Assembly (NCBI GenBank): GCA_030653175.1
Contig: JAURZV010000073.1
Location: 17,033 to 81,032 of the forward strand
From: Methylobacter sp.
Lineage (GTDB): Bacteria; Pseudomonadota; Gammaproteobacteria; Methylococcales; Methylomonadaceae
Length of the DNA: 64,000 bases
Reading direction: 5' to 3'
In this document: piece after piece, positions 7,121-31,132 of the stretch
Position numbering within the stretch: the stretch's first letter is position 1
How the letters are laid out: each line of letters opens with the position of its first letter
Notes under the pieces: generated by a model
Seen by the model: the letters and a program-made list of their open reading frames with translations, nothing else
What the model was told of the DNA's origin: nothing
Databases searched by the model: none
Made by a program: the position numbers and the translations under genes

Positions 7121-9678
7121 AGGTCATCCTCCGGTTGCGTCGGCGTCATCAATTGCGGCACTTGAGAATGGCTGAAGTAGGCTTGCGCAAGCACTTCATA
7201 AAGCCGCCATAACAGTTCCGTCATCGCCGACAAAACGCTTTCCAGCTCACTGTAAACGCCGACATTGTCAGTAACGTTAACCAACTCGGACACTTTGACC
7301 AAGCGTAAGTCGGTGTAGGCTCTGAGTATTAAACGTTCTTCCTCACTCAATTGTCCCTTGCCGCGTTCTCTTGGCAACGCACCGATATGGTCGGACAATT
7401 GATGTAACTGATAGGCCAGCGAACGTGGATGCGTTTTATCCATCAGCAATAATTCCAGCACCATCGGCAACTTGATAAATGAGCGGTAGCGGCGTCGGTA
7501 AATGCTCAAACTGTCGGTGGATATCAACACCGCTTCCAGCAGCTGGTTTTGCAATGCCGGCTCATGACGCTGCACCACCGTGGCGCGCAGCAACGCGATC
7601 AATGCCAGTGCATGCTCCAGGCGACGGCCGCTATCCAGCATCAACCAACCCGCTTCGCGAGTCATGCTTTCAGTGGTTAAGCCGATAAATGCGACAAAGC
7701 CGGTAATTAAATCGTCCAGGTGTTTTTGCAGTTGTTCCGGGTCGCAATCGCCGTTCACGACCCGTTGTTGCCAGCGCCGTTGAATATTATCGACGCAGCG
7801 CCAGGTATCCTGCGACCAGACATCGCGGATACTGAAGGCGGTTTGGGCAAACGCTTGAATGTTGGCCGCCAGCGTGCCGGAGCGCTGGACGTTTTTAGCG
7901 AGTGCCAGTAATTCATTTTGGGGCTCTTTTAACGCAGACGCATTACTTGCAACAAACCCCGGATAGGTGCCGGTTACCTGAGTCAGGGCGCTCAATAATA
8001 CATCGAGGCACCGGCTGTCGAGCGGATCGTTAAGTTCCGGGGCTTCCGCTAACTTGAGCAATATCGTGCGCATCAAGCGAGTAGCCGCTTTGATACGCTC
8101 CAGGTAGCGCCCAACCCAAAACAGGTTATTGGCTGCGCGGCTGGTTAAGGGTTCGGTGTCCGCAGACAAGACCACATCCCGACCGGGCTGAAACCACAAA
8201 CTGACCTGCTTGTCCGGCTCATCAGCCAATACCCAGGTGTCTTTACTGATTCCGCCCGCCTGATTTGAAACAATAAAATCGTCTTGCTGCCGGGCAATCC
8301 GGGTAAGTCCGCCGGGCATCACTTGATAGTCATCGCCGCCGGCAACCGCAAAGCTCCGTATTACCGCAAATCGCGGCTCGATATGGTGGTCGATAAACGA
8401 GGGTACCGTAGAAAAACTGATATGCTCCTGACCGACATAACAATGCGGTTTGGCGATAATGGCGGCACGTAAAAGTTCTTTTTCCCGGGTACTTAGCAGA
8501 CCGCCGAAAAGGACATAACTCCCTGAGCTACGATTGATCGGTTTAATAACCAGTCGATCAAGATTTTGTAACACAAAATCCCGTTCACGGCGCTGACCGC
8601 ACCACCAAGTGGCAACCGAAGGCAGCATCAATTCCTGATTTAAAAAATACCGCGAGAGTCTGGGTAAAAATGCCAATAAACCCGGATTTTCAAGAACACT
8701 GCTTCCCAACGGATTGGCAATCGCCACATTATTCCGGCGCACGGCTTCAAGCAATCCTGCAACACCCAGCCGGGAAGCGCTGCGCAATTCCAATGGATCA
8801 CAGAAAGAATCGTCAACGCGACGCAAAATAACGTCGACCGGTTGCAGACCGTCCAGCGATTTAAGCCAGACGCGGCCGTCGCGTACCGTCAGGTCGTCGC
8901 CCTGAACCAGGGAAAAACCGAGATAAGACGATAAATAGGCGTGCTCAAAATAGGTTTCGTTAAGAGAACCCGGCGTGAGTATGACAATCCGCGGATCTTC
9001 TTTATTATGCGGCGAAATATCAGCCAGCCCCTTACGCAGGGCCTTAAAAAAACCGGACAGCCGATGCACTTGCGTTTCCCGAAAAATATCCGGGAGCACC
9101 CGTGCCATCACGGTACGATTTTCCAAAGCATAGCCGGCTCCGGAAGGCGCCTGGCTGCGATCATCCAATACCAACATGCGGCCGTTATGGCCACGGGCAA
9201 GGTTGGCCGAGTAAACAATCAGTTGGCGTTGCAGGTGGGGCAGGGCGCCCACACAGGGATGCAAAAAACCGTCGTGCGCCAACACCAGCTCACTGGGCAA
9301 CAGGCCTTTTTTCAACAGCTGCTGTTTGCCGTAGATATCTTTTAAGATCAGGTTGAGCAGCTCGGCCCGTTGTTTAAGACCCGCTTCAATAAGCGACCAA
9401 TCTTCACTGCTGATCAGTAGCGGAACAGGGTCGAGCCGCCACGGCCGGGTAAGTTTTTGCGCATCGCCGTAAACATTATAAGTGACGCCGTTTTCTCTTA
9501 ACAGGCGCTGGGCTTCGCGGCGGCGCAACTCCAGCTGTTCGCTGCCCAGCGTTGCAATGGCGTCCATAAAGCGCTGCCAGTAAGGCAGCACTTTATGTTC
9601 TTTGGCGAGCATTTCATCGTAAACGCCAAGTTGGGTGGCGTAAAACTGCGCGTCAATATCGCCGGTTGATTCGTTCAT
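7117..9678 (-). CDS. Circularly permuted ATP-grasp fused to alpha-E domain protein
   Basis: 853 aa; N-terminal half as CP ATP-grasp (LVLDDRSQAPSGAGYALENR, VILTPGSLNETYFEHAYL, VIKPINRSSGSYVLFGG), C-terminal half as alpha-E (LTSRAANNLFWVGRYLERIKAATRLMRT...). Overlaps the transglutaminase start by 4 nt. Confidence 0.9.
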   Translation of the reverse strand: MNESTGDIDAQFYATQLGVYDEMLAKEHKVLPYWQRFMDAIATLGSEQLELRRREAQRLLRENGVTYNVYGDAQKLTRPWRLDPVPLLISSEDWSLIEAGLKQRAELLNLILKDIYGKQQLLKKGLLPSELVLAHDGFLHPCVGALPHLQRQLIVYSANLARGHNGRMLVLDDRSQAPSGAGYALENRTVMARVLPDIFRETQVHRLSGFFKALRKGLADISPHNKEDPRIVILTPGSLNETYFEHAYLSSYLGFSLVQGDDLTVRDGRVWLKSLDGLQPVDVILRRVDDSFCDPLELRSASRLGVAGLLEAVRRNNVAIANPLGSSVLENPGLLAFLPRLSRYFLNQELMLPSVATWWCGQRRERDFVLQNLDRLVIKPINRSSGSYVLFGGLLSTREKELLRAAIIAKPHCYVGQEHISFSTVPSFIDHHIEPRFAVIRSFAVAGGDDYQVMPGGLTRIARQQDDFIVSNQAGGISKDTWVLADEPDKQVSLWFQPGRDVVLSADTEPLTSRAANNLFWVGRYLERIKAATRLMRTILLKLAEAPELNDPLDSRCLDVLLSALTQVTGTYPGFVASNASALKEPQNELLALAKNVQRSGTLAANIQAFAQTAFSIRDVWSQDTWRCVDNIQRRWQQRVVNGDCDPEQLQKHLDDLITGFVAFIGLTTESMTREAGWLMLDSGRRLEHALALIALLRATVVQRHEPALQNQLLEAVLISTDSLSIYRRRYRSFIKLPMVLELLLMDKTHPRSLAYQLHQLSDHIGALPRERGKGQLSEEERLILRAYTDLRLVKVSELVNVTDNVGVYSELESVLSAMTELLWRLYEVLAQAYFSHSQVPQLMTPTQPEDDL

Positions 9679-25747: not shown

Positions 25748-25774
25748 TATTTTGAATTACTCTGGAGAAAACCC

Positions 25775-26116
25775 ATGAAAACAAAGTTACTGATTACCCT
25801 GCTTTTAGCTATTGGTTTGTTGTCCGCATGTGCCGAATTTGACCCGCATTCTATGGATATGAACCTGGCGGTACATAACGCAAAAACCAAAGCCGATCAT
25901 GAGGCGCTGGCACAACACTATGAGGAAGTGGCGCAAGAAATGCAGCTTAAGGTTGAGGAACACAAGAAAATCCTGAGTGAATACGAGCGCGAGCCGTGGT
26001 TGATTGGTAAGCAGCAGGCAACCGGGTTCGGAGTCCATTGCCAAAGGCTGATTGATGTCTATGAAAAAGCCGCCGAGGAAAACCTGGAAATGGCGAAAAT
26101 GCATCGCCAGATGTAA
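25775..26116 (+). CDS. Lipoprotein (113 aa), intact copy of a local triplication
   Basis: MKTKLLITLLLAIGLLSACAEFDPHSMDM...HCQRLIDVYEKAAEENLEMAKMHRQM; lipobox LSAC. Confidence 0.8.
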   Translation: MKTKLLITLLLAIGLLSACAEFDPHSMDMNLAVHNAKTKADHEALAQHYEEVAQEMQLKVEEHKKILSEYEREPWLIGKQQATGFGVHCQRLIDVYEKAAEENLEMAKMHRQM

Positions 26117-26215
26117 CGCTTCACACAAGCCAGGGGATGGAAATGCTACCATCTCCTGGCAATGATGTAAGAATCCTTTTATAAAAACAGCACATCTGTG
26201 CTTTGGGGAAAATCC

Positions 26216-26556
26216 ATGAAAACAAAGTTACTAATTACCCTGCTTTGAGTTCTTGGTTTGCTGTCTGCCTGTAGCGAAATGAACCCTCATCCGATGGATA
26301 ATGAGGCTAGCCGTGCAAAACGCAGTATCCAAAGCCGATCATGAGGCGCTGGCGAAACACTATGAGGAAACGACGAAAGAAATGCAGCTTAAAGTTGAAA
26401 CTTCTTAGCCAGTATCAGTCAATAGGCTATCTCTACGGAAGACCGCCGGATGATTTTGTGGAATATTTTAAAGATCATTGCCAAAGGCTGATTAATGCCT
26501 ATGAAAAAGCTGTCGAGGAAAATTTGAGCATGGCAAATTTGCATCGCCAGATGTAA
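26216..26556 (+). pseudogene. Lipoprotein paralog, degraded copy 2
   Basis: ATGAAAACAAAGTTACTAATTACCCTGCTTTGA: TGA inside the signal peptide; frameshift after ATGAACCCTCATCCGATGGAT; C-terminal part (HCQRLINAYEKAVEENLSMANLHRQM) still recognisable. Confidence 0.85.
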
Positions 26557-26605
26557 ACGCGTCACTCTCTCGGGCGGTTGTTACCTGTGACTAATGAAAA
26601 ATCAA

Positions 26606-26700
26606 GGGTGGGCAAAAAAGCCTGCCCACCCGTGGCTATGCTGACGCGACCTTTTGCGTCGTTGCACTCGTTGGGTTAGCTTGACAACCCATCATGCGGG
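26606..26700. repeat. Family C direct repeat, left of the AT-rich nuclease-like gene
   Basis: GGTGGGCAAAAAAGCCTGCCCAC..TGGCTATGCTGACGCGACCTTTTGCGTCGTTGCACTCGTTGGGTTAGCTTGACAACC; near copy at 28148-28239. Confidence 0.9.
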
Positions 26701-26825: not shown

Positions 26826-28070
26826 ATGAACAACTTCTTACAAATAATTACACAATATAAAACCGATACGCAGAGTGTTTACAATACTTGGTTTATTGAT
26901 AATGACCAACGGCTCAAAGCTTTTCGCACCATTCGCAGAGGGGTTTTGCAGGTGGTGGAAGATATTAAAAACAAAACTTTTCCAAATGATTTTAAGGGAA
27001 GTTCTTTAGAATTTGTTTTGAACTGCATTGCTGAGCAAAAACAAGTATTTGTGGGAGTATCACACCCTTTTTATTGGAAACCTAAATTACGCATACCCGA
27101 TATTTACGAAAATCCAATAAATAAAATTGCCTTTGGTCAATTCTTAGAAAACTGCATCAATGCTAAATCGGAAGAACAAATTATTAAAGAAATAGTACGA
27201 TTAGATGCTCTAAAAATAAAAGGTTTGGGTCCAGCCGTAGGAAGTATTTTATACTTTTTGCATCCTACTTTGTTCCCGCCTTTCAATACTGCCATCGTCA
27301 ATGGGTTTAACACTTTATTTAACGACAAAAAGAAATTAGGGTCTTGGACAGAATACCTAAAAATCAGAGAAATATTGATTGAAACCAACAACAAACACAA
27401 AGCTCAACTTTCTAACGATTTGGGAGCGATTGCGGGTTTGTGTTTTGAAATTGGTACACAAAAAATGCTTATCGGCAATGATGAATATTTAAGTGAAGAC
27501 GAACGAAATAAGTTAGAGAAAAACATTGAAAAACGCCAAAAAGAAATTCAAGACGAAAAACAGGAAGAAAACCTACATTCTGAAATGCAGTTTCATCTTT
27601 TGAAAATCGGTCAAAGCTTGGGTTATGATGCTTTTGTGGCTTCAAATGATCGATCAAGGTCTTATGCAGGAAGTAGTTTTTCGTTTATGAGTCCCGATAA
27701 ATTCCCCGCTATCGATTGTGATAAAGAAACCGCCAGTACTATCAAATTGATAGATGTATTATGGTTTGAGAAAGGGACAAATAATGTGATTTGTGCCTTT
27801 GAAGTTGAAAAAAGCACCAGTATCTATTCAGGAATTTTACGACTGACCGACCTTTCTTATTCCATCGCTATCGGCAATGAAACTTTTTATTTGGTTGTAC
27901 CCGATAGTAGAGAAAGGGACGTAATTATGCAACTCTCACGTCCTTCAATCAAGCAAATCAAAATTCCAATCAAATACATTTTATTTTCAGAACTTCGGCA
28001 GCACTGCGATGCTCTTTGTAAGTTTGGTGACAGCCACCAAATTATGAAAAAAATTGCAAAAACTGTATGA
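26826..28070 (+). CDS. Putative PD-(D/E)XK-like restriction/nuclease-family protein
   Basis: 414 aa, AT-rich; IDVLWFEKGTNNVICAFEVEKSTSIYSGILRLTDL resembles a D...ExEK core; upstream HhH-like KIKGLGPAVGSILYFLHP. Confidence 0.55.
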   Translation: MNNFLQIITQYKTDTQSVYNTWFIDNDQRLKAFRTIRRGVLQVVEDIKNKTFPNDFKGSSLEFVLNCIAEQKQVFVGVSHPFYWKPKLRIPDIYENPINKIAFGQFLENCINAKSEEQIIKEIVRLDALKIKGLGPAVGSILYFLHPTLFPPFNTAIVNGFNTLFNDKKKLGSWTEYLKIREILIETNNKHKAQLSNDLGAIAGLCFEIGTQKMLIGNDEYLSEDERNKLEKNIEKRQKEIQDEKQEENLHSEMQFHLLKIGQSLGYDAFVASNDRSRSYAGSSFSFMSPDKFPAIDCDKETASTIKLIDVLWFEKGTNNVICAFEVEKSTSIYSGILRLTDLSYSIAIGNETFYLVVPDSRERDVIMQLSRPSIKQIKIPIKYILFSELRQHCDALCKFGDSHQIMKKIAKTV

Positions 28071-28147
28071 GGTATAAGATAGAAGTCAAATGCGCAATGC
28101 TTTTCTGCCCACCACATTGATGAATTCATACTTTTGGTGTTATGAAC

Positions 28148-28239
28148 GGTGGGCAAAAAAGCCTGTCCACTGGCTATGCTGGCGCGACCTTTTGCGTCAT
28201 TGCACTCGTTGGGTTAGCTTGGCAACCAATCAATGCGGG
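28148..28239. repeat. Family C direct repeat, right of the AT-rich gene
   Basis: GGTGGGCAAAAAAGCCTGTCCACTGGCTATGCTGGCGCGACCTTTTGCGTCATTGCACTCGTTGGGTTAGCTTGGCAACC. Confidence 0.9.
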
Positions 28240-28334
28240 AGCTGGAAGAAAAAATGGATAAAGAACTTGAGCTTGGATTCTTTGTGGCGCTTGAAAAGAC
28301 CTTGCATACAATTGATTTAACCAGAGGAGATTAA

Positions 28335-28484
28335 ATGATGGTTCAAGATCCGGTTTGCCTAATGCAATTTTCTCCGCGCGAGGCAAAAACAACCGCTGAA
28401 TACGAAGGGAAACTGTATTATTTCTGCTCTCCTTCCTGCCGGAATACTTTTCTCAGCCAGCCAGCCAGCCTTATATCAAAATAA
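28335..28484 (+). CDS. YHS-domain peptide; possibly the N-terminal part of a broken YHS-LOG fusion
   Basis: MMVQDPVCLMQFSPREAKTTAEYEGKLYYFCSPSCRNTFLSQ...; DPVC...YYFCSPSC YHS pattern; ends just after a (CAGC)4 tract. Confidence 0.7.
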   Translation: MMVQDPVCLMQFSPREAKTTAEYEGKLYYFCSPSCRNTFLSQPASLISK

Positions 28485-28494
28485 AGTCACCTCG

Positions 28495-29096
28495 ATGCAC
28501 TTAACTGTAGGGGTCATGGGTTCAGCCGGTAACGAAGCAGCAGACGATGTCAAAGAGAAATCCATGATTCTGGGTCAGAGTATTGCACAACGTGGCTTCG
28601 TATTAATAACGGGTGCGTGCCCTGGCTTGCCCTATGAATGTGCCCGTGGTGCGAAACAAGCAGGAGGATTATCCATTGGTATTTCGCCGGCTTTGAGCTT
28701 GGATGAACATATACACAAGTACCGGTCGCCAGCTGACGTTTATGATGTCCTTATCTATACAGGTAGTGGCTTGATGGGGCGTGAAGTGACGAATATACGC
28801 TCAAGTGATATGGTTGTAATCCTCGGAGGACGTTCCGGTACATTAGGGGAGTTTGCTATTGCTTTTGATGAAGGCAAGTTGATCGGGGTATTACAAGGCA
28901 GTGGTGGAATTGCTGATCAGATTCAGGATCTTGTGGCTAGTTTTCAGTTTTCAGTTTTCAGAAAGATAGCGGTGCACGTTTAGTATATTCAGCCGATCCA
29001 TTGAAGTTAATCGACGAAATGGCAAAGTTATATACAGAACGTCATTATCAACGTCCTTCCTGTTTCTGCGACGAGATACCTGCAGGCGCAGGCTGA
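28495..29096 (+). pseudogene. LOG-family / TIGR00725-like Rossmann protein, frameshifted at a (TTTTCAG)3 tract
   Basis: Frame 1: MHLTVGVMGSAGNEAADD...GGRSGTLGEFAIAFDEGKLIGVLQGSGGIADQIQDLVASFQ; after the repeat the homologous-looking tail KDSGARLVYSADPLKLIDEMAKLYTERHYQRPSCFCDEIPAGAG* is in another frame. Confidence 0.8.
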
Positions 29097-29329
29097 ATTG
29101 ATCCACTCAATTGTACTAAACCGGTTTATGCAGTAGTTTTTACCGCTCATAAGCATTGACCAAACCCTGGAAGATTACGGAAATGTAATGTCTCGGTCAG
29201 CCTCCCGTAAGGAACAACCGTTTAAACTGGCTACATTCAAATAATCGCCCCGGAAACAGACATGAAATCAGTTCCAGGCGGACGGCAGTACCCGCGTTTT
29301 TGCCAGACACTAAACCTAGGAGAAAATCC

Positions 29330-29458
29330 ATGAAAAGTTTGATTACCCTCGTCCTTGGCACCCTCGTCGTCGCAGGCTTTTCCGCGCACAGCATCGCCAC
29401 TACAGACCTTACATTCCCATTTTTGTATGATATAAATTCTTTGGTGAATTCATCATGA
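29330..29458 (+). CDS. Short exported peptide, possibly a truncated gene remnant
   Basis: MKSLITLVLGTLVVAGFSAHSIATTDLTFPFLYDINSLVNSS; signal-peptide-like start with RBS AGGAGA. Confidence 0.35.
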   Translation: MKSLITLVLGTLVVAGFSAHSIATTDLTFPFLYDINSLVNSS

Positions 29459-30462: not shown

Positions 30463-30568
30463 ATGGCGGATGATGTGGCGATGTCATTACCAACTGAACA
30501 CTGAACTATACGTTAACAATCTGAAAAACAATGTCGTTTTAACTATTGAATTACTCTGGAGAAAACCC

Positions 30569-30907
30569 ATGAAAACAAAGTTACTGATTACCCTGCTTTT
30601 GGCTCTTGGATTACTGTCTGCTTGCGCCGAGATGAACCCGCATCCGATGGATATGAGTCAAGCCGTGTAAAACGCGGAAACCAAAGCCGATCATGAGGCG
30701 CTGGCGCAACACTATGAGGAAGCGGCGAAAGAAATGCAGGATAAAGTTGATGAGCACAAGAAACTTCTTAGTCAATATGAGTCAGAAAGTTATCTCTACG
30801 GTAAACAGGCGCAATATTTAAAAACGCATTGCCGAAGATTGATTAATGTCTATGAAAAAGCTGACGAGGAAAACTTGAGCATGGCAAATCTTCATCGACA
30901 GATGTAA
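30569..30907 (+). pseudogene. Lipoprotein paralog, copy 3, with single in-frame stop
   Basis: MKTKLLITLLLALGLLSACAEMNPHPMDMSQAV*NAETKADHEALAQHYEEAAKEMQDKVDEHKK...DEENLSMANLHRQM; one TAA at 30668-30670, frame otherwise intact. Confidence 0.85.
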
Positions 30908-31132
30908 CGCTTCACACCAGCCAGGGGATGGGAGTGTTACCATCCCCTATACAATTGTACGTGCTGGTACCTTGCTCACCCTGGCTCACGAAACCCGTAG
31001 CATAGTAAAGAGTTGTCGGAGCACTTTACATGTGGGCGTGCTGAAAATAAAACATTAACAAGACGTTAAATACGGGCACCATTTGGATTGCCAGATGGTG
31101 GATTAGTCGCAGTGCAACGAAAGGAATTTTTT

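What the first reader, a model, noticed from the sequence alone, without database searches (positions are those of the whole stretch)
28335..29096. YHS-LOG gene broken by two different non-triplet tandem repeats: candidate phase-variable gene
A (CAGC)4 tract at 28454-28469 ends the YHS ORF early. With three units the frame runs FLSQPALYQNKVTSMHLTVGVMG..., fusing YHS to the LOG domain and restoring a YHS-like F..P..Y ending. A (TTTTCAG)3 tract at 28941-28961 then shifts the LOG frame; with one copy (or four) it reads VASFQ...KDSGARLVYSADPLKLIDEMAKLY. Two independent slippable tracts in one gene is what contingency loci look like, though it may simply be a decaying gene. No clear Shine-Dalgarno precedes ATG 28495, which favours an original fusion.
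Basis: partly seen in the sequence, partly recalled or inferred. Interest (0 to 1): 0.75.

Follow-up and report, generated by a model that had tools for sequence, protein, structure and literature searches.

The report
Recently broken YHS-SLOG fusion gene
A gene that is one continuous metal-binding/nucleotide-binding fusion in nearly all its relatives has been cut in this one bacterium by two small tandem duplications; it looks like an ordinary, recently broken gene in a copper-resistance cluster that has lost its neighbours, not a demonstrated on/off switch.

Summary
(CAGC)4 at 28454-28469 ends the YHS frame at TAA 28482-28484, and (TTTTCAG)3 at 28941-28961 throws the SLOG frame off near its end. 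The original state is one fusion: two same-family orthologues (94% protein identity) read as a single 247-codon frame, and 32 of 39 related loci in named genomes are continuous YHS-SLOG fusions. Against these the window carries +4 bp and +14 bp. No aligned fusion has three units at either site, and both arrays are unique in the 4.0 Mb host genome. In 281 kb sampled they are the only non-triplet arrays of this kind inside a gene, so their clustering exceeds chance. The operon has also decayed: DUF411 has lost 396 bp, the next small secreted-protein gene is cut off, and the upstream phosphorylase gene is gone. Codon changes on the window branch are still mostly synonymous (8 N, 17 S), so the break is recent. 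Best reading: a recently broken fusion gene, its insertions made by slippage or tandem duplication. Phase variation remains possible, but nothing positive supports it beyond the tracts themselves, and no second strain or reads could be examined. A truncated SLOG protein may still be made from ATG 28495.

The parts
28250..28333 (+). Short upstream ORF (MDKELELGFFVALEKTLHTIDLTRGD) with the SD-like AGAGGAG before the YHS start; also present in G111 downstream of the phosphorylase gene
   Evidence: DNA alignment to G111 from window 28246 on
28335..28484 (+). YHS part of the fusion gene, ending early at TAA 28482-28484 because of the CAGC tract
   Evidence: Pfam YHS PF04945 E 5.6e-13 over residues 3-44
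28454..28469 (+). (CAGC)4 tract; +4 bp against G053/G111, which have CAGCCAGCCGGGC here
28495..28983 (+). SLOG (LDcluster4, LOG/Moco-carrier-like) part with its own ATG 10 nt after the YHS stop; ends in a frameshifted tail FSVFRKIAVHV
   Evidence: PF18306 profile 2-125 of 151; intact relative 2-150
28941..28961 (+). (TTTTCAG)3 tract; +14 bp against G053/G111, which have one copy
28962..29096 (+). Remainder of the original fusion frame (KDSGARLVYSADP...PAGAG, TGA), no longer in frame with the SLOG part
29263..29312 (+). Remnant of the DUF411 gene: start and end only, 396 bp removed relative to G111
   Evidence: window 29273-29274 joins G111 (reversed) positions 8452 and 8849
29331..29408 (+). 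Remnant of the small secreted-protein gene that follows DUF411 in G111; homology stops at 29408

Best explanation
This is a recently inactivated YHS-SLOG fusion gene. It belonged to a copper/heavy-metal cluster (phosphorylase - YHS-SLOG - DUF411 - small secreted protein, as in G111). In this lineage the neighbours were lost, and replication slippage or tandem duplication added 4 bp at a CAGC run and 14 bp at a TTTTCAG word in the fusion itself. Shown: the two insertions relative to relatives, the ancestral continuous frame, and the loss of neighbours. Inferred: that selection on the gene is now relaxed, and that any YHS peptide and truncated SLOG protein still made (by re-initiation at ATG 28495) no longer do the fusion's job. 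The intact protein most likely couples metal binding by the YHS domain to a nucleotide- or cofactor-binding Rossmann-type SLOG domain; this rests on domains, fold and gene context only.
For: Orthologues in G053 and G111 are single 247-codon frames, 94% identical, with neither expansion. Of 39 related loci in named genomes 32 read as continuous YHS-SLOG frames, six are stand-alone SLOG genes in other phyla and one (L069) is frameshifted elsewhere. None of 26 aligned fusions has three or more units at either site; the heptamer site is a loop where aligned relatives differ only by whole codons. Operon mates are deleted or cut: DUF411 minus 396 bp, secreted-protein gene truncated, phosphorylase orthologue absent. 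The broken SLOG loses the last strand and helix (residues 208-228) of a confident model, mean pLDDT 91, and the last 25 positions of the Pfam profile. No intact copy of the fusion is elsewhere in the genome.
Against: No sign of long decay: no other disruption in the read-through frame, dN/dS to G053 0.105, window-branch changes 8 nonsynonymous and 17 synonymous against 7 and 10 on the G053 branch. Both breaks are exact tandem repeats of frame-shifting length, which is also what a slippage switch would look like. Transcription and translation were not measured.
Confidence: 0.77

Rival explanations
1. Phase-variable (contingency) gene: slippage in the CAGC and TTTTCAG tracts switches the fusion on and off reversibly.
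For: Two exact non-triplet arrays 470 bp apart in one gene, the only such arrays inside genes in 281 kb; coding constraint not visibly relaxed. Four tetramer and three heptamer units reach the permissive thresholds of the H. influenzae survey (three each, PMC2651432).
Against: No aligned relative carries either repeat. Turning the full fusion on needs two independent events, because each tract is out of frame. The tracts are short beside the 13-38 heptamer copies reported upstream of hmw genes in PMC2651432. No other slippable gene tract appears in the sample. The product is predicted to be an intracellular metal/nucleotide protein, not a surface structure. Neighbouring operon genes are deleted.
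Confidence: 0.08
2. The insertions split the fusion into two working cistrons: a YHS peptide and a separately started SLOG protein from ATG 28495, coupled by re-initiation.
For: TAA to ATG distance 10 nt; this Met is conserved in most fusions, and stand-alone SLOG homologues exist in other phyla, starting at about this point in some, e.g. L070; synonymous changes predominate.
Against: The SLOG part also loses its last conserved strand and helix through the heptamer tract; no clear Shine-Dalgarno before ATG 28495; no related fusion is split at this place.
Confidence: 0.11
3. Sequencing or assembly error in a draft genome.
For: Draft of 109 contigs; no reads available.
Against: Insertions of exactly one 4-bp and two 7-bp units in tracts of 16 and 21 bp are not typical short-read errors and fit inside single reads (general knowledge); independent losses in the neighbouring genes point the same way.
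Confidence: 0.04

Closest known systems
YHS-SLOG (PF04945 + PF18306) fusion genes, mostly of Gammaproteobacteria, e.g. Methylomicrobium sp. CROMO (L035), Methylotenera mobilis 13 (L049), Mariprofundus ferrooxydans PV-1 (L057)
   Same: Same two domains in the same order, up to 94% identical, usually in metal-resistance gene surroundings
   Different: The window copy is frameshifted twice; theirs are one continuous frame
Simple-sequence contingency loci of Haemophilus influenzae (PMC2651432)
   Same: Tetra- and heptanucleotide tandem tracts; the tetranucleotide ones lie inside ORFs
   Different: Here tracts are near the minimum countable length, are not shared with relatives, and variation was never observed
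Moco carrier protein / TM1055 / LOG fold proteins (2IZ5, 6Y01, 1RCU, 5ZBK)
   Same: SLOG domain of the intact relative matches them by fold (E 4e-9 to 1e-10, target TM-scores about 0.8-0.88) and the first three by sequence profile
   Different: They lack the YHS domain; a shared ligand is not shown

Membership tests
YHS-SLOG fusion family | YHS domain (PF04945) at the N-terminus | tested here: met
   E 5.6e-13
YHS-SLOG fusion family | SLOG LDcluster4 domain (PF18306), complete to its last helix | tested here: not met
   Domain found (E 3.7e-44) but profile positions 126-151 are lost to the frameshift
YHS-SLOG fusion family | Both domains in one uninterrupted reading frame | tested here: not met
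   Two frameshifts in the window; continuous in 32 of 39 named loci
SSR contingency locus | Non-triplet tandem repeat inside the ORF | tested here: met
SSR contingency locus | Repeat retained in orthologues of related species (supporting rather than strictly defining) | tested here: not met
SSR contingency locus | Repeat number varies reversibly between cells or strains | not testable with these tools
   Only one genome of the species held; no reads
Pseudogene | Disrupting mutations relative to an intact ancestral frame | tested here: met
   +4 and +14 bp
Pseudogene | Relaxed constraint after the break | tested here: inconclusive
   8 N, 17 S on the window branch; too few changes since the break to tell

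The most novel reading that the evidence does not exclude
A two-tract slippage switch acting on an intracellular, metal-linked YHS-SLOG fusion protein in an environmental gammaproteobacterium, with a partly expressed two-cistron off state.
Probability: 0.06. Interest if true: 0.6.

Novelty: new member of a known kind. Interest (0 to 1): 0.17.

Why it matters
As a switch it would extend repeat-driven phase variation to an intracellular metal-linked protein in an environmental bacterium. As a broken gene it is ordinary. The intact YHS-SLOG family is itself widespread, strongly conserved and often beside metal-handling genes, and no paper in the held library mentions both domains.

Tried and rejected
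Plasmid records hold no full-length relative (best 78% cover at 28.5% identity), and DNA comparison found only 67 bp of the neighbouring ORF in a Runella plasmid. Paper searches for YHS with SLOG and for slippage pseudogenes returned nothing. Programmed frameshifting was considered: it would need a shift one way at the first tract and the other way at the second, and relatives have no frameshift to conserve, so it was dropped. Compensation of the two indels (net +18) was considered: the whole SLOG domain between them would be read in a frame full of stops, so it was dropped. One search was a malformed request.

Full report
What is there. The window carries a YHS ORF (28335-28484) and a SLOG ORF (28495-28983), followed by the remaining codons of the original gene to TGA 29094-29096. 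The two tracts are exactly as described: CAGC x4 at 28454-28469 and TTTTCAG x3 at 28941-28961. Pfam confirms YHS (E 5.6e-13) and the SLOG cluster 4 family (E 3.7e-44).

The ancestral state. Of 237 genomes of the same family, six others hold a close relative. Five of them cover nearly the whole fusion in one open frame. The sixth, G028, keeps only residues 125-246, preceded by unrelated sequence at the start of its contig. G053 (the Methylomicrobium sp. CROMO contig, L035) and G111 (a 3-contig assembly) are 94% identical to the read-through protein. At DNA level, within the gene, they differ from the window by substitutions plus exactly +4 bp at the CAGC site and +14 bp at the heptamer site. 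They have CAGCCAGCCGGGC and a single TTTTCAG. In named genomes 39 relatives were found. Thirty-two are continuous YHS-SLOG frames, most from Gammaproteobacteria (Methylocaldum, Methylotenera, Sedimenticola, Chromatiales and others), plus Mariprofundus and one MAG labelled Actinomycetes. L069 is frameshifted in different places, and six relatives from other phyla are stand-alone SLOG genes. None of 26 aligned fusions has three or more units at either site.

Are the repeats more than chance? In 281 kb of the host genome only three non-triplet exact arrays of this size exist; two are in this gene and one is intergenic. Both arrays are unique in the genome. Two in one 760-bp gene is unlikely by chance (my estimate is about 1%). 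It is what one expects if such insertions survive only where a gene is no longer needed. It is also what a contingency gene would show, so this test does not separate the two.

Surroundings. In G111 the order is phosphorylase - YHS-SLOG - DUF411 - small secreted protein - CopA-like and CopB-like genes. In the window, homology begins at 28246, directly after the phosphorylase gene of G111 would end. DUF411 has lost 396 bp, leaving only its start and its end, and homology to the secreted-protein gene stops at 29408. No orthologue of the phosphorylase was found in the genome (best 41% identity on another contig); one DUF411 gene exists on another contig. So the gene sits alone in the remains of its cluster. 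In other organisms the fusion often lies near P-type ATPases with YHS domains, efflux genes, DUF411 and small YHS proteins (read by eye), which suggests a role in metal handling.

Consequences for the protein. The intact relative folds with high confidence (mean pLDDT 91). Its SLOG domain matches TM1055 and the molybdenum cofactor carrier proteins by fold and by profile, and LOG proteins by fold. In the window the heptamer insertion replaces everything after about residue 202, removing the last strand (208-212) and helix (215-228), and the CAGC insertion replaces the end of the YHS domain. The Pfam match shrinks from profile 2-150 to 2-125 of 151.

Age of the break. dN/dS between the window and G053 is 0.105. 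Polarised with G110, the window branch has 8 nonsynonymous and 17 synonymous changes and the G053 branch 7 and 10. There is no excess on the window branch, so most changes predate the break, and the break is recent (inference).

Phase variation. The H. influenzae SSR survey counted tetramers and heptamers from three units upward (PMC2651432), so length alone does not exclude it. The case against is that no aligned relative keeps the tracts, two independent events are needed to restore the frame, the operon has fallen apart, and no other gene in the sample has such a tract. Variation among cells could not be tested. I therefore call it a recently broken gene (0.77), leaving 0.08 for phase variation, 0.11 for a working split gene and 0.04 for error.

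Noticed in passing
window 26601-26700 and 28142-28239: Direct repeats of about 100 bp (89% identical) flank the 414-aa ORF 26826-28070, which has no Pfam match; homology to G111 starts at 28246, just after the second repeat, so the ORF may be an inserted unit.
   Followed up: partly
window 28003-28069: 67 bp at the end of the 414-aa ORF are 89.6% identical to a Runella slithyformis plasmid, hinting at transfer across phyla.
   Followed up: no
window 25753-26158, 26201-26565, 30546-30948: Three copies of a small lipoprotein-like gene (73-80% identical DNA); the ORFs at 26341-26556 and 30734-30907 look frameshifted or shortened, so neighbouring genes may also be decaying.
   Followed up: partly
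L079:1-484 (G028): A same-family orthologue keeps only the last 122 codons, preceded by unrelated sequence at the start of its contig: a second broken copy or a contig-end artefact.
   Followed up: partly
L069:4001-4739: Another YHS-SLOG gene with frameshifts at different positions, in a metagenome contig; decay or sequencing error.
   Followed up: no
L049, L057, L059, L074 and others: The intact YHS-SLOG fusion is widespread and strongly conserved, often beside metal-handling genes and, in G111, G053 and Mariprofundus, near a glycogen-phosphorylase-like gene; no paper on it was found in the held library.
   Followed up: partly
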